From contig NC_089726.1 in NCBI RefSeq assembly GCF_035083965.1, positions 15,691,501 to 15,755,500 on the forward strand: a DNA stretch of 64,000 nucleotides. Direction: 5' to 3'. Below, in pieces: positions 508 through 59,193 of this stretch. The notes below the pieces were generated by a model. That model searched no databases. It was not told the DNA's origin and saw only the letters and a program-made list of their open reading frames with translations. Made by a program: the position numbers and the translations under genes. Every line of letters begins with the position of its first letter. The stretch's first letter is position 1. The stretch is from Branchiostoma lanceolatum (taxonomy: Eukaryota > Chordata > Leptocardii > Amphioxiformes > Branchiostomatidae).

Positions 508-3500
508 ACATGGCGAAGGAGCGCAACATCCTCCTGCAGAAGGCGTACCCGGAGCTGCGGGAGTTCTGTCAGAAGCAGGGGCTGGACTTCCAGGTCATGG
601 ACATGCGCTGGGGCGTACGGGACGAGGTCGTTGCTGATCACATGACCTGCGCCCTGTGTCTGATGGAGATTGACACCTGCAAGAGACTGTCCGTTGGACC
701 CAACTTTGTGGTGAGATTTCAGATATTCTAAAATCTAGTGCTGTTAAGAAATAAGGGTCTTCTGATTTCAAACTGCATATCAGATGTAGTTCTTGTCTTA
801 GCTCTATATGTTCCTTTACATTTTGAGAAGGCCTAGGAAAATCAATGTTGTGATTCCGATTTTGACATAACTTTTTCTGTTATATGATAACATGATTGAC
901 GAGCGTATGTTGGAAAACAAATCCACAATACGTTTTTATCACTCAGATGTCTCACTCCGACTAGGGTGGGCAGGTTTTTCTTGGTCTGAGGTATCCAGAA
1001 ACACAAGATTTTTTTTCCTAGGCCTGAGGAAAATTAAGTCGAAAATCATGAATAAATTGATTACATTTATGTCCCCTCTCCAGGCATTCCTTGGCAACAG
1101 GTACGGCTACCGTCCCATTCCCGCAAAGATTGAAGCAGAAGAGCTTGACATTCTCCTGAAGAAGGCCATCGAATTAGACATGGACACCACCGTCATCAAG
1201 GAATGGTACCTCCAAGACGACAATGCTGTCCCAGCAGTCTGTTTACTACAGCCAATCACCAGCAAGTTTAAATACTACACGGACATGGAGCCAGCCAATG
1301 AGAGCCTGCGGCAGAAAGACAAGGACGGGTGGTATCAGGTGACGGTTCAGTTGGAAAATATCCTCCGCACAGCTGTGAAGGCAGCTCACAAGGAAGGACT
1401 CGTCACTGAGGAGGCGCAACACAAGTACATCAAGTCAGGTAATTTGTTTGTGCAGGTTTGATTGGCTAGAATATACAGAACAGAAGAAACAATTTTACTC
1501 CCCTTTTTGGCAACACCACAGGTCAGAGGGGCAAGGTGCGGACCTGGATTTAGTTGAAAGTATTCTAAAATTCCTTGACAATGTGTGCATTAGTCTAGGT
1601 GCCATCCAGCTGAGTTTACCTGGTCAGGCTCCTTTAGTGGGAGGGCGGAGCAAGATGGCACCCAGACACGTGTGCATTCCTAGTTGAGTTATATTTTGGA
1701 TACAATGCCAGGTTACGGTGTTTGCAAAGAGTATGGACAATTTTACAGCTTTATATCCATTGTCAATATAATGCATTAAGCTTTTTTTGTTGTTGTTTTT
1801 ATTAGTGACTGAAACTGAGATTAATAGAGGCATAATGCAGTCAGCTGATGCCAACCAGCGAGCTGTCATCTTCATGCGGAACCTGCATAACATCGAAAAG
1901 CACGTCGGTGCGGATGCAGTCAATGCCTACCTGGACCTGATGGACAAAGAAAAGCTGAATGAGGAATCACAGAGACTATTGGAGGACCTAAAGGGGAAAC
2001 TGCCTTCTAAACTGAAGAATGTTCACCAGTATGAAGTAGAGTGGACCGACAAGGGGGTTAACGAAGACATAGAAAGTCATGCTTCGTATCTGGAACAGTT
2101 TAGCGATGACTTTGTAGCCGACCTAAAAACAATGATCTTCAAGAGCTTGCAGAGCGAGAATGAAGAAGAACAGAATGATGATTGGTTTTTGACAGAAGTG
2201 ATCTCACACGCACGTTTCTGCCAGGCTAAGTGTGAAAGTTTCTGTGGAAGACAGGAGATATTTGATGCCGTGTATACATACATGAAGGACACAGCCAAGG
2301 TCAACCATCAACCGTTCGTGATCCACGGAGCCTCTGGTACTGGGAAGTCGTCTATCATGGCCATGCTGGCACAGAACGCTGCACAGACGTGTGGAGAAGA
2401 CCTGGTGACTATCATTCGTTTCCTGGGCACGTCACCACACAGCACCCTCATCCACCCTGTTCTACAGAGCCTATGTCTACAGATATGTGAAGTCTACGGC
2501 ATCGAGTCGCCTGCCGAAAGGGTTCTCAACAACTTCGCCGAAATCGTCCAGTATCTGTCCACGCTTTTGGACAAGGTGTCCGAGAAGGACCGGCCCCTTC
2601 TCATCCTCCTGGACTCCTTGGACCAGCTGTCGTCTGTGGACCGAGCCTACAGCCTGACCTGGCTTCCCAAATCCCTCCCACCGAACGTCCACATCGTGGT
2701 CTCCACCTTGCCTGATGAGTTTGATCTTTTGAAGACTCTGAATCGCACAATACGCAGCGACAAAAGCTACATCCAGGTGCCCACACTGTCAGAACAGGTG
2801 GGAGGGGAGATTCTAGACACGTGGCTTGCTCAGGTCCAGCGATGTCTCACCGACAAACAGAGGGAGGTCATCTTGTCTGCGTTTTCACATTGTCGGCAGC
2901 CGTTGTTTCTCAAGCTGGCATTTGACGAAGCTCGAGGATGGAAGTCGTACACGCCAGAATCAGAACTACGGGTCGCCCAGTCAGCGAGGGCAGCCATCAA
3001 TCTGCTGTATGAGAGACTGGAGGTTCAGCACGGAACCATCTTTGTGTCACACACACTGGGGTACATCGCTGCTGCAAGGTAAGAATTGGCATCAACCTTC
3101 TTTTGTCTGCAGGTTTTAAACACACCCATCTGTTGAAAGAACGCTCTTCTTCAGATTGGCACTGAAACTGTCCTTTTGTTACTTCTAGGAATGGAATAGC
3201 AGAACATGAGCTAGAGGATGTCCTTTCTCTGGACGACGAAGTGTTGGACGACGTGTACCAGTACTGGTCTCCTCCCAACAAGGACCTGGTGCGCATCCCT
3301 CCACTCATCGTCACCCGCCTCAAGTACGACATCATGGAGTACCTCGCCGAGAGACAGGCAGACGGGAAGAGAGTCCTGCAGCTGTTTCACAGGTACAGTA
3401 CTTGTTGTATCTTCTCATGCCAGATCAGCCATCACCAACCAATCGCGTCACAGCCTACGGTCAAGAGGTAACATGATTGGCTGGTAACTTTCCCACTAAT

Positions 3501-6500
3501 CATGATTGGCTAACGGCTGGCCAATGCTAAAGTAGCAAGAAGGAAAGATCACAGGTTTTTATTTTATGCCAGGTTAATTGCAATGATGGCAATCTCTTCT
3601 GTTGTACTTTCCACAGACAGTTCATAGAGTGTGCTCAGGAACGCTACCTAGCGGGAGACGACAGAAAAGCACGTCACCACGTCCTGGCCGACTTCTTCCT
3701 CGGCACGTGGAGCAACGGTCGCAAGAAGGAGATTACCATGGACGTCAATGGGAAGAAGGAGTACTACAACGCCGACCGTAACGTCGTCCCTCAGCCCATG
3801 AAGTACGACGACAACGTCTTCAACCGGCGCAAACTGAACGAGGTGACCTTTCACCTTCTCCATGCAGGCAGGATGGACGACATCTTTGAACACACTCTGG
3901 GTAAGGATTAGTGATGTGTAAATATAGAATACAACACGGGGTATTCCGTATCACCCAAGGTACCTACCAGTCTGACCGCAGGAAGATCGCCCGTAGGCCG
4001 GGGACGATCTGACCCGTGGGAGGGCAGGGACCGAGGGTGATGCGGAATACAACGTGTTGTATTTTATCTGTGTCATACCCACCTGAGAAAACACACATTT
4101 CAATGCGGAATGCGCCAGAAGTTGAGGAAGTTTAACAACATTGATTCCAACCCCCGAATCTGGTTTTCGAATTTTCGACGGCGGCGCAACCGGCATGCTC
4201 GAAACGCATTCTAAATATTCTATGGAAGCCTGTGTGATACAACTTTGAACCCCGTATGATACGGAAAATTATCACACGGTCCAGAACACCCGTATAAAAC
4301 ATTTTCGTGGCCCAATTATGACATAATGCCTCATATCTCTTCTATGCCATCTTGTTTCAAACAGTTTCAACAAATTGTCAGCCCTTCTGTTTGAATGGCC
4401 ACTCAGAAGAGTATGCATTCACTTCACTTTTATTCAATGAGCCAAATATGCCAAATGCTATAAGCCATTTAATTCTATTAAAGAAAGAAAATTAGCCAGA
4501 AAGTTACAATAATACTTCTGACAATATCTAACAAATGAAAACTGCACAGAGTTGCTTCATTGAGTTTTATTGGTGTCGAGAGTCACCCTTGTCATTTTCT
4601 TTTCTCTATAGGTAATCTTAACTTTATGAACAACATGATCGATGCCTTCAGTGTCAAGGACCTGATAGAAGATTACAACATGGTGCTTCAGGTGCAGGAT
4701 AACCTAGAAATCAGGCTTCTCAGGGATGCAATTAGGCTCATCAAACCCACTCTGGAGTTCAAAGGTACCTGTTTCTTTTATGCTTGTTCCAATTTTTCCA
4801 ATTTTCTGTTTCAAGTTTTTGTCAAGACTACATGTATCTCGAAGAATTAACTGAATTTTTGAACTGTTGCTTAATAGATTCTGAGCCAAATCTGATGGGA
4901 GTTGTTGGGCGTTCAAGTTTGAATATTCCTTAAGTTATATACATGTATGGTAAATTTTAGTCTTAGTTTTAGGTACCTTTGTTTAGTTTGTGTTTGTTAT
5001 GACAATTTGCTTAAATACAATGTCATGTATATCATTAGCATGGTATGCCATATTTTTCAATACCATTAAATGCATGCTTCTTTAGTATCCAAATGATAGT
5101 ATGTTTATAATTTAGTACATGTTAATGTTATCGGCAATTACTGTAAATGCTGGATTTTTGGTTGCATTTGGATGTTTGTTGTATTTTCATTTGATTCTGC
5201 CTTTTTAACATAGATCTTATGAATATTTAATGTTTTTCTGTTGTAGTTGCAATCATGATCAATGGTATTCAAGGTCAACTTCTTTAACTGCAATCACAGT
5301 TTGTAGGTGGTGTGGTGTTGGCTTCGCTGTGCTGTGCTGCACTTCTGTGTTCTGGAAACCTCACTTTTTAACATCTCGGAAAATCATCCGTTTTGTTTTC
5401 ATTTCCAGTCTAATTTGTAACAAACATTACATGTAGAAACTCTATGGTGGTGCCCTTTGACCCCAACAGGTGGCGTGCCCAGCTATCTGGCATTAGAGCT
5501 GATTGGACGACTTGTGCCCTTCGAACGTCAATCCCGACAGGCCGTAGACAGCCTCCTGGAGCAGTCGCGGGCGTGGTGCAAGAAATTTTGCGACCGCGTG
5601 ACGCGGCGTCCGTTCATGTTGCCTCACAGCCCTTCCATTTACCCACCAGGTATATGATTGGTTCTAAACCCATACGGATACTAACAATGGAAGTTTTCTC
5701 CCTAGGCGGATACACCAATCCCTTGGCCGCAGAGTTGATTGGTCGCTTGGACTGGCTGAGTGACCAATCCCAGCACATTGGGCCCCTCATGTCCCAGTGC
5801 AGGGCCTGGTGCACACGATGGTGTGACAGGGACCGAGAACCCCGACTGGTACCCCAGGGTGCTATAGCTCGCACAGGCCAGCTAGCCAACCAATCACCGC
5901 AATGTTCCTGTTGCACGCGATGGTCTGACGGGGAACGAGACCCGTCCGTGATAACCCAGGGTTCTAGCTTCCCACCACCAGGTACTCCCGACTGTCCTCT
6001 CCCTTAGGTGTCTCTATAACCTCTAACCCCAAAACGCATGTTGTTTTTGTTGTCCTTACTCGAAGCCTTTGAACGAGATGCTGTCAACAGCCTGTCTGCT
6101 GAGCTGGTCGGTCGTCTGTCCTCGTATAGTTCTGACTCTGTCAGGATTAGCCAGTTACTGAGCCAGTGTCTGTCCTGGTGTAGCGCCAACTGTGTTGCTA
6201 GGGGGGCGCCCTCGTTCGTACCACATGGTTCAAGCTTCCCACCACCAGGTACCCCTCCTTCACACCTCTGTGTTTTCTTTCAAAGCCTTCTCACAAAAGG
6301 GTTCCATCGTGAACGTGCTGCCGGCAGAGCTCATTGGCAGACTGTCCTTATTCGGCAAGCGTTTTGAGCGGATAGCGACGTTGGTGACGCAGTGCATGTG
6401 GTGGTGTCAGGACCATTGTGTGTCTAACGGTGACCTGATGTTTGTTACAAGGGGCACGGGCTTCCCTCCCCCAGGTACTTAACTGCTGTTTGGCTTCAAG

Positions 6501-9500
6501 GCTGCACGGCCAAACTTGAATCTATGGATGACATTGGTGCATTCTTTGCTTTTGGCTAACTTGACCCCAAAATCTATAAGCAGCTTTGCTACTTGACCTT
6601 GTGATTAGTTGAATTATGACAAGTAATGTCACAATGCAAGAAATCAGTTTGAGCCCTTCACAAAACTACTTCTAGATGAAAGAATGTCAAAATTGTCATA
6701 AGTCCTAAAATGTTGCAAAGAATGTCATATTTGGGGTCCCTATAAGATGTCATCCATAAAATCAAGTTAATGCAGCCTTTTTAAACATTTGGTGCCATTC
6801 ACAAAGACATTGATGAATTAAAACTGCAAAAGCACTCAGGGAATATTGACTCAGCTCTTTCTTGCAATTCCAAGGGCTTGTCTTTAGACATTTGACATAA
6901 ATGTGATACACCACAGTTGAATGATTTAATATCATATAAAACTGACATAATGCATCACCAGGCTTTATGAATGACCATTTTATTGCCAAATTACTGCCAA
7001 ATTTGATCCAAACAGAAGCAAACTCCAAATCCCCCCAGCAATCATGATCTGCAGCATTCACTGTGGCGTCCATTCTTCTGTGCAAATTAATTAACAGTCA
7101 CTACTTACAACATCATCACTTCCTGGGGAAAAATCCTCGAAAACATTGCATCTCCCTCTACACTGTCATTAAGAGCTCTTGTCACATTTATTCATACTTT
7201 CCCAAATCAAGTTCCTGTTTCCATATTTTATTTTTCCTATTCAATCTTCTTAGAGACTTGAAGCATGCTTTGTGTGATACAACTGTGTCTTGTATGTTCT
7301 GTCATTTACACAACGTAATGGGGGACTCAACTCCAGAGGCGAGTGTTCTGGTTCTCCAGATAATATTTTTCTGATTATCCCAAAACATGTTGGCAATTCG
7401 ACTAGACAGCAGTTGCAATATACAGCCTCAAACTGCTTCTGCGGTTGATTCCCCCTTTAAGAAGCACCATCACTGAATGTCTTTTTAGTTGGTACAAATC
7501 AATTTCAATTGATATACTTCTTTGTACACATGATCTCATAATTTGTGATCTACCTTCCTCATACTTTGGGATCTATATCAGATCATTCCATCAGATTGTT
7601 CAACTTTAAGTCTCATTTTAACATTCACAACATTGATACACTGTCTAATTAACTTTCTCTTGCAAGTTGAAGACTTGCGTCCAATCAGTGACTAACTTGA
7701 ACCTCTTTAAATCCTCCTGCCCTGTGATCTTTGTACATGTGTATAGCCATCAGGTCTAATTCTGTGGAACCCTGCATGTTCTGCTAATTGTCAAAATACG
7801 CTACTCTGTTTTTATTTAGCAATGCTTTTTGTGTATGATTCTGCATGTTGCTTGTAATGTCTAGCAATAAACTGCTATGCTTATGAATTGTAATATTCTT
7901 ATTATGCATATAAATCAATGAATGTGCAATGCATGATATCTGGGACCAAGCAAAATGCAGCAGCTAAAACGAGAATTTAAAAATGTACATGGAGATGGAT
8001 CAGTTAAACTGCACGAGATACATGCACATGTGGAAGAAAATAAATTTTTGTAGAGCCAAACAATTTGACTATAAGTTTAACCATTAAAGAGTCATTGATT
8101 ATTTGATTAAGGCTAAAACTGCTATCATTATAGTTGTCAGAACTTCATAGTTTGTTATTGGATAAAAAGAAAACCAGGTTATAATTATTTTCAGAAAAAG
8201 TGTACTGACTATACATTACCTTCCACTAACAGGTGGTCCCCTGCGGACGACCCTGGCCCATCACCGAGACGGCATCACGTCCATCGCCATGACTCCAGAC
8301 GGAGGCTACATGATGACCGCTGCACGAGACTGTACCATCCGCATCTACGAGAACGAGTCGGACGTCATGGAACTGGAAAGAACACTGACGGGACACACAG
8401 GTGCTCAAGAAAATCTTCATATTTGTCAAGAACTAGAAGTATATATTTTGGCTAGACCAATGGGGCAGAGCCCTTCTTTAACTTGTTATTTGTCAGCACA
8501 TGTAGCAGATAATCATAACAGTAAATCACAAAGTAGTCTCTTTATGTTACAGCCGCGATAGAGGTCCTGGCTGCAGCCCCCAACAACGAGCTGCTAGTGT
8601 CCGGCTCACTGGACAACACCATAAGGGTGTGGAACCTGGAGACAGGGCGGCTGGTCATCACCATGGAGGAGGACCACGCCCACTACCAGCAACACGCCCT
8701 GCTGACCACTACCATGGACTCCCGCAAGGTGGTGTCACCTGCTGGGAAAGTGGTGAGTGGGAGAAAGCAGTACTACCATTGTATTATCAACTTTGCTGTT
8801 GATGATAAACATAATGTCCCGTAATACCAAAGATGTCAGATTTAAGACTCCAGAGCTATAGACATTCAAGTAACTTGTCTTGCTTTGGATTTCAGGTTAA
8901 TGTCTGGGACATAGAGTCTGGCAAGCTGCAGTTCACCTTGAAGGGGCATGAGGGAGCTGTTTCCTGCCTGGCAGTTTCCTATAACGACTTTGATGACAGC
9001 CAGTACATCATCACAGGAGCAGAAGACAACACCATCAAGATGTGGAGCACAGAGACAGGCGAACTGAAAAACACCTTCTCACACCACACAGATCACCTGA
9101 CCTGTCTCAAGGTCACCCAGGATGGAAGAATTGTTTCCGGGTCAAAGGACACAACACTTTCTGTCATAGATATTGAGAACAGGGAGGTGGTTCACAGGTT
9201 AGAAGGGCACTCCCATCCTGTGTACTCTCTAGCCATCACTTCAGATGGTAAATATGCAATATCCGGGTCCGACAAGGTGGTGAAACTGTGGAACTTATCG
9301 AAGGGAAAAGAGGTCCACCATTTGCAGGGGCACTACGGCATTGTGGACTGTGTTGGCGTCACCAGCGACAACAAGGTCATCGTGTCCGGAGCTCAGGACG
9401 AACACCTCAACGTCTGGGACTTCGAGAGTGGTCAGCTCGTCCAGACACTGGACGGACAAGCGGCAAAAATCAACGCGATGGAGGTGACAGGTTACATCGT

Positions 9501-11297
9501 CGTGACGGCGTCCACAGACTCGTACTACACCAAGGTTTGGGACGTCGAACAGAGCAAGATGAAGATGTCCACTCCGAGGTTCATCGACAAGTACGGCATT
9601 GTGGGTGTGACGAGTGACGCAGGGTACGTGGTGTACAAACGGGAGGGCAGCGAGAATGAGGTGAACGTGTGGAACTCAAAAGATGGCAAAGACATCCGAA
9701 CTATCACTGACAAGGATGGTAAGCGGTCATGTTCTCATTGTTTAGACTTGTATGCACTACTTCTGTAACATTTTCTGAACACCACATTCTCTTAGACTAC
9801 CTGATGATATGATATTACATTTATGTGAAATGCAATTTAACCAATCTTTAAATTGTAGACTGCCTGATATTATATTACATTTATGCAAAGTGTAATTCAA
9901 CCAATCTTTAAATTCTAGCTGTAAGTCATCAACTTGCAACAGTTCATATTTTGTAGAAGCGGTATTGTGCTTGTAAGGAAAGTTGAAAATTCTGTGTTTT
10001 TATAGGCTCTATAACCTACCTGAGGATCACTCAGGACAACAACTGTGTGGTGACTGGAGACGAGGCAGGTTTCATCAAGCTGTGGAACCTGAACACGGGC
10101 CAGTTGATACGGCAGCTGGACAAGGCTTCAGGTGGCATCAGGTGCTTCTGGATCACGCGCATGGACAGGTGTGTACCTGAGAAAGAAACCTGTTACCAGT
10201 TTGTAGTCTATTATTAATGAATATTGCTGGACAGGTGCAAAATGTGATTGGTCACTTTCCTTTTGATGTCAGAGCGGGTTATATCATTATTCTGTTAGAT
10301 TAGTACGATTAACCATTTACTGTTATCTTTCTTTGATTAAGGTGCTTTGTTTACAATGCCCAAGAAATAAATTACACTTCGCAAGTCAGCATTTATTTTT
10401 CTTCATAGGTACCTGGTAGCAGTCACAGACGACAACTCCGTGTCAGCCTGGGATATCGACTCCATGATGCTTCTATGGACCCGCAAGCCGAACTGTGAGG
10501 GGAAAATCACCTGTGTTACCATGACAGACGACAGGAAATACACCGCAATTGGCACGGACGACAAGCAAATTTTGGTCTTCGACAACAAGCTGGACAAAGC
10601 TGCGTACATTCTGGTCGGCCATCAGAGCCCGCTGACATGTTTGAGTGTCAGCCATAACCAGAAGTTGTTGGCCTCAGGGTCTTCAGGTGAAACCATGAGG
10701 GTGTGGGACCTCGGCACGGGGAGACTCGTACACGAACTGTACGCAAAGTCACCCGTGTTTAAAGGGATCGTGTGTCTGTCGTTTAGTTACGATGACAAAT
10801 ACCTGCTGACGGGGGGTCACGACAGGTCACTCAAGATGTGGGACCTCGAAACAGGTAGGATATTATTTCAGTCATTTAAATACATTTTGGGCCACAATTC
10901 TTTTTGATTGAAGCTTTGACTAAGAACATTTAAGATGTGTTTGGTAGAAAAGAGGCTGAAACATGCTAATTTTACATGATGAACAGTTTTTGAGCATTGC
11001 CTGCATATACTCGTCTGATGAAAATTCATGTTCTCCTTGTCCTCAGGAAAAATGGTGACTGCCCAGTACGTCTATGCAACAATCACCAACATAGTGGCCA
11101 ACCGTGACGATATCGTCCTGACCACGAAACTTGGCTACGTCATCATCGAAGACATCCTGCTTCCCTCGCCGCGTCCCCCAGAACCCGAGGAAACCCCGTT
11201 CAGTGGACAGTCTGACTTGGATGAAGCCGTTCAACCTGTTTTTAAAGTCAGGGCACGCCAGATGAAGAAGAGATCTCACTTCTGTCACATTCTGTAA
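508..11297 (+). CDS. NACHT and WD40-repeat protein (NWD1/NWD2 family), 5'-partial
   Basis: STAND-type P-loop NTPase. Exons read from splice signals and frame: 508-710, 1084-1438, 1806-3078, 3189-3392, 3617-3900, 4612-4764, 5470-5649, 5706-5981, 6066-6248, 6286-6474, 8233-8400, 8553-8752, 8896-9718, 10006-10168, 10409-10854, 11047-11297 (stop TAA). All phases fit. The first exon opens mid-codon and lacks the family's N-terminal strand, so the start lies left of the window. Order of domains: DUF4062-like N-terminus (DMRWGVRDE, FLGNRYGYRP); NACHT with Walker A GASGTGKSS at 2327-2353 and Walker B LLILLDSLD near 2597-2626; helical linker; a tandemly repeated junction exon; about 14 WD40 repeats, enough for two propellers. 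The C-terminus is polybasic and ends CHIL, a CaaX-like box. With every array exon included the coding part is about 1780 codons. NWD1 versus NWD2 orthology cannot be settled by eye. Vertebrate NWD1 has been tied to androgen-receptor signalling; that role is not implied here. The 1758-nt intron 6475-8232 shows no further exon copy. Confidence -1.
3928..4063. repeat. Short inverted-repeat element in NWD intron
   Basis: Arms 3928-3956 and 4035-4063 are 29 nt each and pair with only a few mismatches (left arm begins AATACAACACGG). The interior is about 78 nt with no coding sense. It looks like a MITE or similar non-autonomous element. No convincing target-site duplication was seen. Confidence -1.
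5470..6474 (+). other. Tandem array of duplicated phase 1-1 exons in the NWD gene
   Basis: Four consecutive exons (5470-5649, 5706-5981, 6066-6248, 6286-6474) encode versions of one ~60-residue unit. Common features in order are AELIGRL (R1 has LELIGRL), then Q-(S/C)-x-x-W-C, then a run ending PPPG (YPPG in R1). Every exon starts after the first base of a codon and ends with one base of the next, so any one could be skipped or swapped without a frameshift. Introns between them are 56, 84 and 37 nt. Known NWD proteins have one such unit just before the first WD repeat (PPGGP-type junction), and here exon 8233 begins GGPLRTTL. The second exon is a fusion of one full unit and the 3' half of another. 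Whether the copies are used together or one at a time cannot be told from DNA. Confidence -1.
6513..6768. repeat. Imperfect inverted-repeat element after the exon array
   Basis: The left arm 6513-6549 (AACTTGAATCTATGGATGACAT at its outer end, interrupted in the middle) is matched in reverse by 6715-6768, which ends in ATGTCATCCATAAAATCAAG. The inner parts of the arms also pair (TGCATTCTTTGC against GCAAAGAATG). Probably a degraded palindromic transposable element in the long intron 6475-8232; the rest of that intron is AT-rich and featureless. Confidence -1.
9795..9918. repeat. Two-copy tandem duplication in NWD intron
   Basis: Two units of about 60 bp (9795-9857 and 9858-9918) share the core ATATTACATTTATG and the tail CAACCAATCTTTAAATT, or close variants. 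The duplication lies in the intron between exons 8896-9718 and 10006-10168 and does not touch the splice sites. Confidence -1.
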
Positions 11298-29460: not shown

Positions 29461-30328
29461 CTTAATATTATTCAAGAGACTGTCAAACGTCAAATGATGT
29501 CGAGTTGTGTTGTCAGAGAAACGAAATTTTTTTCCCGCGTAGAATTTTCGGAAAATAACGCCGTTACACTCAAGTCAGAACTTTCTAACAAAGAGGACTT
29601 CTACGTAAATGCTGTAAATTGCACCTAATACACTTATGAGAAGCAATTCCGTTCAAAATTAGGCGTCAGGAAGAAAACAAGTCAGGCAAAGTTTCAGACG
29701 ATTTTTTTCCTCATGGGCGCCGCCATTACACTTGTTCTTCTACCCACAATGCCACGCGCACACAACCTATGACACCTGTTTCAGAATATTCCATTCGAAA
29801 AAGATGGGGGTGTTTGATGCTGTGATTAATCGGGTGATACCATAATTTGTGGGGTGGTAAATTGATTATATATTTACCCATGCTGATATGTATCTATGCA
29901 ACCGTGGGAAATAATCAATCTCCTTTCCTCTGAAAATATAAGGCTATCTATTTTGTGTTGACTAACAAATCCGGTGAACCGCAGATAAAACAATTACCCG
30001 CCCCCTTTCAGGTACCCAATGAGGATCAAGTGAAAGAGCCAGTCGGACTCGTTTTCCCATATCTGCGGAACCAATGACCTGTGATGAAAAAGCCGGCAAA
30101 GCATCAACTTCCCGGGGCTCAGCTGGTCGGCGGAGGTGATTTTCCTCGCGCAGTGTATGGATCCAACCTACCAGTGAAAGCACTCCCACAGTCAGCTGCT
30201 CTTATCTAAACGCCTGGGATTTTCAGTCATATTTCTGATTACCGTGCGGTATGCCAAGTAAGTCGGACGCATTGTATTCCCTTTAATTCGATAACTATTG
30301 GAACAGTAGGATACCAGATTGAGAGGAC
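29461..30328. promoter_or_regulatory. Head-to-head promoter region of RPAP3 and the TMEM229-like gene
   Basis: The 868 nt between two divergent start codons. The RPAP3 side contains GCGCCGCCATTAC, whose reverse complement has a YY1-like GGCGGC/ATGG core and is compatible with a TATA-less housekeeping promoter. The TMEM229 side has no clear TATA box near the start. No other coding sequence seen. Confidence -1.
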
Positions 30329-31315
30329 ATGGTGCAATTGGCCGAGCTCAAATTCCCCCTCCCGTTATGGAGCCGGGCCTACTTCTATGGGGCACACGGT
30401 GTTCTGAACGAAGTGGTGTTCACCGCATTGTTAAACCTGGTTACCACCGGCGGCCTGCGCCTCTACGGGACCACGTCTCTATGGATGTTCATCAGCTATG
30501 GACTGTGCGGCACCTTCGTCACCGAGAAGATTTTCGCGGAACTGTACACCCGGCGCCGGCACATCCCCGTTCTCCTGCGGGCCTGCTGCTACGTCCCGGC
30601 CGTCTACGCCTGGGAGCTGCTCTCGGGGTTGCTGCTACGGACATTTGACGCCTGTCCCTGGGACTATAGTGACTATCGCTACCATTTCCTCGGTCTGGTA
30701 ACGCTGGAATATCTTCCTCTATGGTATATGCTGGGCCTGTATCAGGACCATCTTTTCCGCTACCTACTCTGCATACAAAAGAAGGGCCCGGGCGAGGCAG
30801 GTACTGAAAACACGGACAAATCGATAGAAACCAACGATGCGAAAGTGGCCGGCGAGGGGCCCTTGCCTCCGTGGATACGGTTTTGTTTCTACGGCATGCA
30901 CGGCTTCCTGGATGAAGTGGTCTTCACCATGCTCTACGATTGCGTCACCAAGGCTCCTGACGCGCGGCTGACGGGTTACACCTCCATCTGGTCATTTCTC
31001 ATCTATGGCAGCTGCCGCATCATGGTCGAGCGGTTTGGCTACGTCTACCTATACCTCCAGTGCGGCGTCCCGACCAGATATCGGGTAGCCCTGTATCTCG
31101 TCATCGCCTATACGTGGGAGTTCGTGGCCGGCCTCATCCTTCGACAGTTTGGAGCTTGCTCCTGGGACTATAGCCATTATCGCTTCAACGTCATGGGACT
31201 TATCACGCTGGAATATGCACCTGGGTGGTTGATACTAGGTCTGTACCAAGACGTCATGGCCAGTTATCTTTTAAGCCTCCGCGTTAGAAAGGAAAAACAC
31301 ATTAGTGTTGACTAA
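30329..31315 (+). CDS. TMEM229-like multi-pass membrane protein with two tandem modules
   Basis: A single uninterrupted frame of 328 codons starting MVQLAELKFPLPLW. Two similar modules cover about residues 16-150 and 184-315. Each opens with (Y/F)FYG-x-HG...(N/D)EVVFT, continues with TS(L/I)W-x-F-x-(S/I)YG, and contains WE(L/F)-x-(S/A)G-L-(L/I)-LR-x-F-(D/G)-AC-x-WDYS-x-YR. Each closes with F-x-x-(L/M)-GL-(V/I)-TLEY...LGLYQD. This is the TMEM229 signature (PF06541-like family). Each module has about four hydrophobic helices, so seven or eight in total; a charged linker of about 35 residues (KKGPGEAG to EGPLP) joins them. Human TMEM229B is 167 aa, one module. TMEM229A is longer and may be the closer relative, so I give no symbol. 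The molecular function of the family is unknown. The missing introns fit retroposition or ancestral intron loss. Confidence -1.
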   Translation: MVQLAELKFPLPLWSRAYFYGAHGVLNEVVFTALLNLVTTGGLRLYGTTSLWMFISYGLCGTFVTEKIFAELYTRRRHIPVLLRACCYVPAVYAWELLSGLLLRTFDACPWDYSDYRYHFLGLVTLEYLPLWYMLGLYQDHLFRYLLCIQKKGPGEAGTENTDKSIETNDAKVAGEGPLPPWIRFCFYGMHGFLDEVVFTMLYDCVTKAPDARLTGYTSIWSFLIYGSCRIMVERFGYVYLYLQCGVPTRYRVALYLVIAYTWEFVAGLILRQFGACSWDYSHYRFNVMGLITLEYAPGWLILGLYQDVMASYLLSLRVRKEKHISVD

Positions 31316-50000: not shown

Positions 50001-53000
50001 TTGAGTATAGTCTCAGGGCTATTCGTGCAATGTAGCCTCACTATGGCACATGTATTTAGCCAAGCACACCCCAATCTTCTAGATTGTTGTTGTTCTTTTC
50101 TGTGCAGAGGTTTGACGCTTGAGGTTAACACCAGAAGATTACTCATATATATACACAGGGTCGCCACCTCTCTGGCTTTACATCACCATCCAAAATGACA
50201 AATGCAATCCCTTGCAATATGTCCAAAGTGGGGCCAACCCTGTGATTGCACCCCCACCCCTACGAATCCACAAAATTTGATCCACATGGCCAAGCAGTAG
50301 TATTGCATTACCATTTTCACCACAGGGACATGTTCTTTATTCACCCTCAACTATTCAGTATATTCAGTATGATTGACAATTTTTTGTAAGGCCACACCAT
50401 CTTAATTTTATGGATGACGTCCTTTAGAGACCCCAAAACTAATGCGCGCGGGCGAAAAAAAAGAAAAATCCAGCAGAGAAAAGAATGCTGCTTACAAAGC
50501 TGGTATTGCGATTTGAACCACAGAACACAGTGCATCAAGTTAACAACAAGTCTTTAGTTGTAGGAGGTACATGTAGATTGTCTATTCATCACAGCAGACT
50601 CAGCTCAAGTGATTAATGTTTAATATATTGACAAGAACGACGCTAGTTTTCTTGTGAACTTTGATCCTGACGTAAATCAACGGCTCGCGGCCGTCATCCA
50701 TAAGATTAAGATGGTGTGGCCTAATAGATGTGTCAGAATTGTGAAGAATTAATCTACTAATTGTACATTCAGGATTGTGCCACAACTACAATTACTGTTG
50801 GCATTCATTGGACTTGATGGTTCAATATTCTAGTATTTTTTACAGAAACTCTTGAGAGACAAGCTGGGCCGTCCTGTGTCGATGACTCGGTACATGGCGC
50901 AGCAGAAGGCCCGAGCCTCGGCCGCCGCGGCAGCAGCCAGAGCAGCAGCAGCGGCAGCAGCAACAACAACGACAGACTCCGAGAGCGACGTCCACTTCTA
51001 CAGCAACATTCTACAGTCACGGCCTGTTGGAAACAAACATGGCACGTACGCAGACATGTCGGGAAGAGTGTTTGAGGTACCCATTTTCACTTATTGTACC
51101 TTTTCACACATTTGATACCACTTAAACAGTAGAAATCTTTTAGATGTTGTGTTGATAGTAGTAATACAACAATGATGTCATCTAAAAGGTTAACTTAACT
51201 TAAAGCAGAACCACGTTTTAATTTCCAATCATAATACTAATGATGTCAATGATATACATACTTTTTTATAGGAACTTCTTTCCATCACTTTACCTCCAGC
51301 AAACATTGAAATTGTATATTAACAACATGATGATTCCACTGTATCATTTTTTGTACTGTATAAAATATTTTAAAATCTCTTAACTTATTAGCTGATGAAT
51401 TATTAGCTGATGAATTATTAGCTGACTTATTGACTTTTTTCACCTTAGGAAGTTTATGGTCTTTTTTTTTCTTGTTTTTATTTCCTTTAGCCCATAGGAA
51501 CCTCAGACCATGACTACACAGTCTTTCGTAGTCCTGGGGACAAGAAGAGAGCAGTCAAGTTGAAACATGCACAGAGTAGAGAGAAAAAGGTATGGTGAAG
51601 AAATCAGTGATAATAAAAGACCATTTTGTAAATGTCCTCTCACAGAGGCTTAATGGCTCTCCCTTTCTTACATTATTAAAAGATTTTGACAATGTGTATT
51701 GAGATTGAAAGAGAATATATACTGATCACAGTTAAAATTCATTACAGCTAAATTTCTTTGCAAAGAAGACTATACCTTGGAACCACAGTTATGTCATGTG
51801 AGATGGTGGTGTTATACCTAGTTGTCTCTGATGTTATGTACTCAATACTGTTACTTGTCCACTTGTAATAAACTAATTCATGGTTTGAAAGAGCACATGT
51901 GCAGTGTAGTTCATTGGGGTAATATGTTTAAGTTGAAGGACCCTGGCAATACATATAGAATAGCCAGAGGCCTTCAACTATGACATATGATATTACCCAA
52001 AAAGCATCACACTGCACATGCACATTTCAAACCTTAGCTTTGGTCATGAATTTTAACAAATATTCAATGTACAAATATAACGATGCATTATTGATCCTAA
52101 CTCCAGCCCAAGCCACCTAAGAAGGCCCTACAGCGGCATAAGAGGAAGACCACCTCGGATGACACGTCTGGTGACAAGGTCAAGTTTGAGGACTCCAAAG
52201 ACCCCCCACGACAGTGCTACGGTCCGGAGTGTGTCAACGCTGCCAGATCGGGGTCCAAGTACTGTTCAGACGACTGTGGGCTCAAGTTAGCCACCAAGTA
52301 TGGCAGCATTTATATACTACATTCAAAGTTTCTTGTCTATATTGTATATTGTTACCTCCATGAAGTTGAGGTTTTCTTTTTGTGTGTCTGTCTGTCTGTG
52401 TGTCAGTCTGTATTACTGTTTGTCTGTCTACATATTACTGTTTGTGTTTCCACAACAAAAAATGTACAAAAGCTTGTTTGTGATTGTTTCCGTTTGGAAA
52501 AAATTGAAATTTGTTTACGTATTGAATTACTTTCAATTGAAAAGTATATTCATTCTATCTACCCTATTGTTATGAGACTTCCAATCCTTTCACTTCTATG
52601 TAATTGTTTAAAAATAATGTTGGAAACTGAACTTTTGTTTTGCAGTCGAATCTTTGAGTTCCTCCCCCAGAGAATTCAACAGTGGCAGCAGAGCCCTTGT
52701 ATCGCAGAGGAAGGTGAAAAAAGGTATGAAGAGCTACTACAAATGGCGTAATATCATTCTGACATTCTTCATAAAAAGAGGCAAAAACCCATATTTGCAG
52801 GATATATAATCAAAGTTTTTCCAACTATGATTTTTTAGTTGAAATTTCTGTTATAATTCAAAATGTATATGTTTCAGATTGTAGATTGTAAATATTCATC
52901 AAGTTAACCGAAATGTTGCTTTTAGTAGCATTTCGTTGTGCTAAGACCTAATTAACATAAGTTGTGTTTACAAGGTGACTTCAGAAATGGGCACACTTTA

Positions 53001-58809: not shown

Positions 58810-59193
58810 GAAATGCGTGTGTAAACCCAGCCTTATTCTCCTTGCTTGGAAATGCGTGTGTAAACCCAGCCTTATCTCGGTGCTTGGAAATGCGTGTGTA
58901 AACCCAGCCTTATTCTCGGTGCTTGGAAATGCGTGTGTAAACCCAGCCTTATCTCGGTGCTTGGAAATGCGTGTGTAAACCCAGCCTTATTCTCGGTGCT
59001 TGGAAATGCGTGTGTAAACCCAGCCTTATTCTCGGTGCTTGGAAATGCGTGTGTAAACCCAGCCTTATTCTCGATGCTTGGAAATGCGTGTGTAAACCCA
59101 GCCTTATTCTCGTTGCTTGGAAATATGCGTGTGTAAACCCAGCCTAATTCTCGTTGCTTGGAAATGCGTGTGTAAACCCAGCCTTATTCTCGA
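58810..59193. repeat. 38-40-bp minisatellite, ten units
   Basis: The unit contains GAAATGCGTGTGTAAACCCA followed by GCCTTATTCTCGGTGCTTG. Ten copies are counted. Most variation is at the CGGTG/CGTTG/CGATG position and a one-base T deletion. The extreme similarity suggests recent expansion. Confidence -1.

What the first reader, a model, noticed from the sequence alone, without database searches (positions are those of the whole stretch)
5470..6474. Tandem exon array at the NACHT-WD40 junction, possibly a mutually exclusive splicing cassette
NWD-family proteins carry one short unit (AELIGRL ... W ... PPGG) between the helical region and the WD40 propellers. Here that exon is present four times in a row, each phase 1-1, each keeping AELIGRL-like and PPG anchors, with divergent middle sequence. 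Diverged paralogous exons with kept frame and kept ends are the usual signature of alternative exon cassettes (as in Dscam or some ion channels). A NACHT receptor with a choice of hinge exons next to its sensor propellers would be a new way to diversify an innate-type receptor. Equally, all copies may be included as a longer linker.
Basis: partly seen in the sequence, partly recalled or inferred. Interest (0 to 1): 0.75.

Follow-up and report, generated by a model that had tools for sequence, protein, structure and literature searches.

The report
Four-copy hinge exon in NACHT receptor
An animal sensor-type protein gene of the Apaf-1/NWD kind carries four old, individually preserved copies of the short exon for the hinge between its arm and its sensor propellers, spaced so tightly that at least two neighbouring pairs probably cannot be spliced together, so the cell may choose between different hinges; no transcript data were available to prove it.

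Summary
The array is real. Four in-frame, phase 1-1 paralogous exons (A 5470-5649, B 5706-5981, C 6066-6248, D 6286-6474) lie between the helical arm and WD40 propellers of a NACHT gene. A model of any three finds the fourth (E 8.5e-9 to 1.1e-16; no fifth copy). Synonymous sites are near saturation, nonsynonymous ones are not: the copies are old and probably all live. The unit is ancient: 44 distinct prokaryotic NACHT/NB-ARC-WD40 relatives show no second unit. It is predicted as a helical hairpin plus a flexible tether, Apaf-1-like. Inter-copy introns are 56, 84 and 37 nt, the other 12 at least 110. So A-B and C-D cannot reach the ~50 nt 5' splice site-branch point distance reported for human splicing; B-C is borderline, non-adjacent pairs are not blocked. 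Best reading: alternative hinge exons with tropomyosin-like steric exclusion, most likely one per protein. A possible RNA docking site (7315-7354) is a weak, unresolved lead. No RNA data or second Branchiostoma genome could be reached.

The parts
4612..4764 (+). Exon upstream of the array: last part of the helical arm (ends ...AIRLIKPTLEFK|G), weak donor AAG|GTACCT
   Evidence: collinear with prokaryotic arm; donor score 0.9
5470..5649 (+). Hinge exon A (180 nt); keeps the most prokaryote-like tether (RRPFMLPHSPSIYPPG)
5650..5705 (+). A-B intron, 56 nt; best branch point TACTAAC at 34 nt from the 5' splice site, 21 nt from the 3' splice site
5706..5981 (+). Hinge exon B (276 nt) with an internal partial duplication of its second half
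5982..6065 (+). B-C intron, 84 nt; best branch point CTCTAAC at 44 nt from the 5' splice site
6066..6248 (+). Hinge exon C (183 nt), AAG acceptor
6249..6285 (+). C-D intron, 37 nt; no branch point 12 nt or more from the 3' splice site can lie more than 24 nt from the 5' splice site
6286..6474 (+). Hinge exon D (189 nt), AAG acceptor; predicted two-helix hairpin plus disordered tail
7315..7354 (+). Weak candidate for an RNA docking site in the downstream intron: predicted to pair with the region before each of the four acceptors (-19.7 to -25.1 kcal/mol); single-genome evidence, function unclear
8233..8400 (+). Common downstream exon: G|GPLRTTLAHHRDG..., first WD40 repeat
510..11297 (+). Part of the NACHT-WD40 gene inside the window; the spliced model read from the codon at 510 is 1566 aa with unit A and 1569 aa with unit D, ending in a stop; the gene's 5' end may lie upstream of the window

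Best explanation
The locus is a tandem array of four alternative exons, each encoding a complete version of the hinge of an Apaf-1/NWD-type NACHT-WD40 protein: the last two-helix hairpin of the arm plus a flexible proline-rich tether that enters the first WD40 blade. Shown: four homologous in-frame copies kept as coding sequence; no second unit in the prokaryotic relatives examined; inter-copy introns far shorter than any other in the gene. Inferred: when one copy's 5' splice site is bound by U1, U2 cannot productively bind the next copy's branch point a few tens of nucleotides downstream (tropomyosin-type steric exclusion), so A-B and C-D are not joined and B-C rarely. Each donor is instead joined to the distant exon at 8233, and the exon ending at 4764 is joined to one copy's acceptor. 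The main products are therefore proteins with one hinge out of four. Because the hinge couples the sensor propellers to the NACHT motor, the choice would tune autoinhibition, reach or activation threshold rather than swap the ligand-binding face. Exclusion of non-adjacent pairs would need an extra rule; a possible RNA docking site at 7315-7354 is the only lead for it.
For: Paralogy and live coding: (pS 0.62-0.81, pN 0.36-0.51 over 6 of 6 pairs). Of 11 prokaryote-conserved unit columns, 8 are invariant in all four copies against 12 of 48 columns overall, p 1.6e-4. No second unit in prokaryotic relatives: 42 of 42 distinct proteins (4 of them with one unit split by an insertion, 1 truncated) plus 2 new ones. 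Hinge location: collinear alignment and profile bits A 90.3, C 85.4, B 78.0, D 71.5, no unit 52.4; Pfam APAF1_C on 2 of 2 prokaryotic arms; Apaf-1 among the best solved-structure matches; hairpin plus low-confidence tether. Steric evidence: introns 56/84/37 nt against 110-1758 nt for the other 12 (Fisher p 0.002); branch points 34/44/13 nt from the 5' splice site, against a threshold of about 50 nt (PMC7969005 passages) and assembly abolished at 35 nt in E1A (PMC6692369 passages). Weak donors 5 of 5 against 2 of 10.
Against: No transcript evidence. Introns of 43, 49 and 56 nt are spliced in human cells (PMC4463651 passages), so a 56-nt A-B intron is not proof of exclusion; the amphioxus limit was not found. 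An 84-nt intron is near the human short-intron peak of about 85 nt. A+C, A+D and B+D are not sterically blocked, and double inclusion keeps frame. Exon B carries about 32 extra residues and 4 of 42 prokaryotic units carry an insertion, so the hinge tolerates added length. [quoted passage not shown] On their own, B and D are not recognised by the prokaryotic unit profile in the window scan, and D scores 1.4 bits. The coding score of C is not clearly above its other frames. Donor and branch-point scores used matrices recalled from memory.
Confidence: 0.5

Rival explanations
1. Two exclusive pairs in series: one exon from A|B and one from C|D, giving two-hinge proteins (AC, AD, BC, BD). The two shortest introns (56 and 37 nt) forbid A-B and C-D, while the middle intron (84 nt) and the longer ones can be spliced.
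For: The steric pattern itself; A and B share the G|G start, C and D share the A|F start and AAG acceptors.
Against: No prokaryotic relative examined has a second unit. The best B-C branch point is 44 nt from the 5' splice site. Similarity does not split cleanly into AB and CD (B-C is the closest pair overall; halves).
Confidence: 0.17
2. Loose cassette exons: any subset that the spliceosome can join is used, including single, double and skipped forms, without strict exclusivity.
For: All lengths are multiples of three and all phases 1-1, so every combination and the skip form stay in frame; weak donors throughout the region; exon B tolerates extra length.
Against: A-B and C-D adjacency is physically disfavoured; no second unit in the prokaryotic relatives examined.
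Confidence: 0.18
3. All four copies are constitutively included as a longer hinge (about 276 residues).
For: Open frames, matching phases and GT-AG ends; a repeated helical hairpin could lengthen an arm.
Against: It needs removal of a 37-nt intron, below the 43 nt that is the shortest named as spliced in human cells in the passages read, and of a 56-nt intron; the 12 other introns of the gene in the window are 110 nt or longer.
Confidence: 0.09
4. Only one or two copies are used; the others are unused relics.
For: AAG acceptors of C and D and weak donors; D scores lowest against the prokaryotic profile.
Against: No stop in frame in any copy although synonymous sites are near saturation; 8 of 11 ancient core columns kept in 4 of 4 copies.
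Confidence: 0.06

Closest known systems
Mutually exclusive exons with steric exclusion (alpha-tropomyosin Tpm1; OGDH exons 4a/4b)
   Same: Duplicated exons separated by introns whose branch point lies under ~50 nt from the upstream 5' splice site (values for Tpm1, SV40 and OGDH from PMC7969005 passages).
   Different: Four copies, very short introns and a NACHT-WD40 hinge; exclusivity not demonstrated; non-adjacent pairs are not blocked.
FYN tandem duplicated exons
   Same: Tandem duplicated exons covering an interdomain region (SH2-kinase linker and start of the kinase domain), giving isoforms with different interactions (PMC9741552 passages).
   Different: Kinase rather than STAND ATPase; two copies; FYN isoforms are experimentally known.
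Dscam exon clusters
   Same: Arrays of diverged paralogous exons in a receptor-like gene; a weak candidate docking site exists here.
   Different: The candidate pairing covers acceptors and was found in one genome only; the copies encode a hinge, not half of a ligand-binding domain (Dscam details recalled).
Apaf-1 and NWD1/NWD2/TEP1 STAND ATPases; prokaryotic NACHT/NB-ARC-WD40 proteins
   Same: NACHT/NB-ARC - helical arm - WD40 order; arm matches Pfam APAF1_C in prokaryotic relatives; same order described for human NWD1/NWD2/TEP1 and APAF-1 (PMC13174449 passages).
   Different: No second hinge unit in the prokaryotic proteins examined; four hinge exons here.

Membership tests
Mutually exclusive exon cluster | Tandem homologous exons in one gene | tested here: met
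Mutually exclusive exon cluster | Same phase at both ends so that exons can substitute for one another | tested here: met
   phase 1-1, 4 of 4 copies
Mutually exclusive exon cluster | Exactly one copy per mature transcript | not testable with these tools
   no RNA data; no own genome held
Mutually exclusive exon cluster | A mechanism that prevents joining of copies (steric) | tested here: inconclusive
   A-B and C-D below 50 nt whatever the branch point; B-C borderline; A-C, A-D, B-D not blocked
Dscam-type docking/selector arrays | One intronic docking site pairing specifically with a selector at every copy | tested here: inconclusive
   Candidate 7315-7354: worst of four pairings -19.7; reached by 0 of 20 shuffled introns, 1 of 120 sets of shuffled selectors and 0 of 210 overlapping sets of four from 10 constitutive acceptors. 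But it was the best of four scans (the others: 2, 4 and 14 of 20 shuffles), single constitutive acceptors with 60 nt pair as well or better (e4 -28.4, w6 -25.4, e6 -24.0), 3 of 1599 windows elsewhere do as well, and there is no second species to test covariation
NWD/NACHT-WD40 proteins | NACHT domain | tested here: met
   PF05729 E 1.4e-12, above cut-off
NWD/NACHT-WD40 proteins | C-terminal WD40 propellers | tested here: met
   PF00400; PF23586 Beta-prop_NWD2_C 51.7 bits against cut-off 33, though other propeller models also pass
NWD/NACHT-WD40 proteins | N-terminal DUF4062/TIR-like domain | tested here: inconclusive
   part of it would lie upstream of the window; 510-710 and 1084-1437 give no Pfam match above cut-off (NPHP3 13.7 bits, cut-off 33). 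The DUF4062 label is recalled from motif look
Apaf-1-like arm | Pfam APAF1_C helical domain before the propellers | tested here: inconclusive
   met by 2 of 2 prokaryotic homologues; the animal arm pieces give no match themselves but align collinearly

The most novel reading that the evidence does not exclude
An Apaf-1-like NACHT-WD40 protein keeps its sensor and motor constant and diversifies only the mechanical hinge between them, by a steric splicing switch among four ancient hinge exons (one of four, or one of each of two pairs), perhaps helped by an RNA docking site downstream: a splice-controlled setting of the activation threshold of a STAND receptor.
Probability: 0.45. Interest if true: 0.72.

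Novelty: new variant of a known kind. Interest (0 to 1): 0.55.

Why it matters
[quoted passage not shown] the hinge is where that movement is transmitted. A natural four-way choice of hinge would let one receptor be set to different thresholds or partners in different cells and would give four ready-made variants to test how sensor movement is coupled to assembly. It also links an animal splicing array to a protein unit already present, without a second copy, in the bacterial and archaeal relatives examined. An exon array at a NACHT-WD40 hinge was not noticed in the listings of the paper searches made here (20 of 21, 20 of 33, 12 of 22 and 3 of 3 papers listed), which cover open-licence papers only.

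Tried and rejected
Competing RNA structure (Dscam type): four scans were made (upstream or downstream intron, region before the acceptors or after the donors). Three were matched by 2, 4 and 14 of 20 shuffles; the fourth, downstream intron against the pre-acceptor regions, gave a window at 7315-7354 not matched by 20 shuffles. Some single constitutive acceptors pair with it as well or better when 60 nt are taken, but with 37 nt all four array acceptors (-19.7 to -25.1) pair better than the 11 constitutive ones (-11.9 to -18.7); this window had been chosen for the array. So it is not rejected but kept as a weak lead; the pairing would cover acceptors, which fits masking of a copy better than choosing it.

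Homology of the unit in eukaryotes: not possible; no own genome is held, and protein-pattern scans of genome and viral contigs found nothing. Solved structures: no convincing sequence relative of the arm-unit (best E 0.0075 and 0.016, unrelated molecules); the profile that included a WD40 repeat only collected WD40 proteins in the 60 of 584 rows shown. Pfam knows no family for the unit itself (4 of 4 copies; the only hit, UvrB_inter with D, is below cut-off; the matches of the first query lie in its WD40 part).

VIA-align 2 second look: most rows span the first propeller only, so the arm was barely tested and Apaf-1 is not among the 50 rows shown; the Apaf-1 statement rests on Foldseek (rmsd 8.4 to 11.4 A over whole chains).

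Retention of the short introns as coding: 56 and 37 nt shift the frame; the 84-nt one meets a stop at 6005-6007. Codon-composition scores: true frames 0.10-0.28 bits/codon, all above the 95% point of intron segments (-0.10), but some reverse frames score higher, so this is weak support only.

Assembly artefact: not likely, as the copies are too diverged; not otherwise tested.

Amphioxus minimum intron length: not found in one search and the one paper opened for it (passages). Apaf-1 splice variants: one search, nothing used from it.

Full report
What was checked. The window holds, on the + strand, most of a NACHT-WD40 gene. Exons from 510 to 11297 join into a single open frame that ends in a stop codon (64 for the form without a unit); the gene's 5' end may lie upstream of the window. 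Pfam finds NACHT in 1808-3076 (E 1.4e-12) and WD40 repeats downstream, including the NWD2 C-terminal propeller model above its cut-off. The expected DUF4062-type N-terminus was not confirmed by Pfam and is recalled only.

The array. Between the last arm exon (4612-4764) and the first WD40 exon (8233-8400) lie four exon-like units: A 5470-5649, B 5706-5981, C 6066-6248 and D 6286-6474. Each is flanked by AG and GT, is a multiple of three in length and phase 1-1. Aligned, they share 15 invariant columns. A profile of any three finds the fourth in the six-frame window at E 8.5e-9 (A), 6.7e-14 (B), 1.1e-16 (C) and 9.2e-16 (D), with no fifth copy. Pairwise amino-acid identity is 30-50%; synonymous differences are near saturation (pS 0.62-0.81) and nonsynonymous ones are not (pN 0.36-0.51), in 6 of 6 pairs. 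No copy has a stop in frame. The copies are therefore old and have been kept as coding sequence. B contains an internal partial duplication of its second half (45 of 66 nt).

What the unit is. A motif scan of GTDB contigs gave 11 loci, with 12 motif occurrences, from records named as cyanobacteria, Armatimonadetes, a proteobacterium, a Phycisphaerae MAG, an unclassified bacterium and two archaea. Aligned, the animal protein and the prokaryotic ones are collinear across arm, unit and first WD40 repeat. A profile of the prokaryotic sequences alone scores the animal protein 90.3 bits with A, 85.4 with C, 78.0 with B, 71.5 with D and 52.4 with no unit. Against a profile of the unit on its own in the six-frame window, only A and C rise above noise (7.5 and 6.5 bits); B and D do not, so their link to the prokaryotic unit rests on their likeness to A and C and on context. 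The prokaryotic arm matches Pfam APAF1_C above its cut-off in 2 of 2 segments tested; the animal arm pieces do not.

Copy number in relatives. From 49 loci (11, 8, and loci for 30 of the 50 places), 42 distinct proteins matched the arm-unit profile. None has a second unit; in 4 the single unit is split by an insertion and 1 is truncated. Of five further loci, two hold new proteins, again without a second unit (L051 weakly, 8.7 bits; L054 65.8 bits plus a 0.5-bit fragment elsewhere). The genome searches found matches in 27 of 292 genomes of the phylum of L006 (E up to 1e-6), 2 of 294 and 1 of 151 (both E up to 1e-8), so the sample leans to that first phylum. Animal relatives could not be examined.

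Structure. AlphaFold2 on the arm, unit and propellers of L010 (mean pLDDT 88.3, pTM 0.50) puts the unit mainly as two helices (120-131, 137-147) followed by a low-confidence stretch (about 151-168) that leads into the first blade. Foldseek ranks Apaf-1 second, third and sixth among solved structures (E 1.9e-49 to 3e-45), the highest query TM-score shown (0.61) being with the human apoptosome; the propellers contribute most of such matches. Window exon D alone is also predicted as two helices and a disordered tail (mean pLDDT 68); its alignment included the prokaryotic units, so this is not independent. The unit is thus read as the last hairpin of the arm plus a flexible proline-rich tether: the hinge.

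Conservation of the core. Of 48 comparable columns, 12 are invariant in the four copies; of the 11 columns conserved in at least 9 of 10 prokaryotic units, 8 are among them (hypergeometric p 1.6e-4); the three not kept are a D, a W and a T. At one of the 8 all four copies have E where prokaryotes have Q.

Splicing geometry. The introns between copies are 56, 84 and 37 nt, the other 12 introns of the gene in the window 110 to 1758 nt (Fisher p 0.002). The best-scoring branch points lie 34, 44 and 13 nt from the upstream 5' splice site; those of A-B (TACTAAC, 6.4) and B-C (CTCTAAC, 7.1) are the two highest of the gene, closely followed by the one before 8233 (6.3) (recalled matrix). Independently of the branch-point call, A-B cannot exceed 43 nt and C-D 24 nt if the branch point is at least 12 nt from the acceptor. 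Published human work puts the steric threshold near 50 nt (PMC7969005 passages; PMC6692369 passages), with assembly abolished at 35 nt in E1A. Against this, human introns of 43, 49 and 56 nt are spliced (PMC4463651 passages). All five donors of the region (4764 and A-D) are weak, against 2 of 10 others (p 0.007), and C and D have the only AAG acceptors (2 of 16 listed).

How it most likely works. Neighbouring copies A-B and C-D are not joined, B-C rarely; each donor reaches the far exon at 8233 instead. With a one-unit ancestral architecture, the simplest outcome is one hinge per protein. The sterics alone would also permit A or B followed by C or D, which is the main rival.

A possible second layer. 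A 40-nt window in the downstream intron (7315-7354) is predicted to pair with the region before all four acceptors (-20.2, -25.1, -20.3, -19.7). 0 of 20 shuffled introns, 1 of 120 shuffled selector sets and 0 of 210 overlapping sets of four out of 10 constitutive acceptors do as well.

Known or new. Tandem exon duplication with exclusive splicing is a known kind, and FYN shows it at an interdomain linker (PMC9741552 passages); the same paper says that exclusive splicing of duplicated exons is not common. An array at a NACHT-WD40 hinge was not noticed in the paper searches made (listings and abstract starts only, open-licence papers). The proposal stays untested without transcripts.

Noticed in passing
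window 5706-5981: Exon B carries an internal, in-frame partial duplication of its own second half, so that it holds about one and a half units.
   Followed up: partly
window 6328: A second in-phase AG lies 42 nt inside exon D (seen by eye in the sequence, no tool run); it would make the C-D intron 79 nt and start the exon at ELIGRL, but it seems to lack a pyrimidine tract.
   Followed up: no
window 7315-7354: Stretch of the downstream intron predicted to pair with the region before each of the four acceptors; weak candidate for an RNA docking site.
   Followed up: partly
window 30323-31312, + strand: A 330-residue open frame matches Pfam PF06541 (ABC_trans_CmpB), E 3.4e-13, two stretches.
   Followed up: no
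window 52101-52748, + strand: Open frame with a borderline match to the C-terminal domain of CpG-binding protein (PF12269, 25.8 bits against cut-off 26.3).
   Followed up: no
window 58810-59192: Regular tandem array with a unit of about 39 nt, 9.8 copies, 95% matches.
   Followed up: no
L009, L043, L045, L049: In these prokaryotic relatives the single unit is split by an inserted segment between its first helix and its second half.
   Followed up: partly
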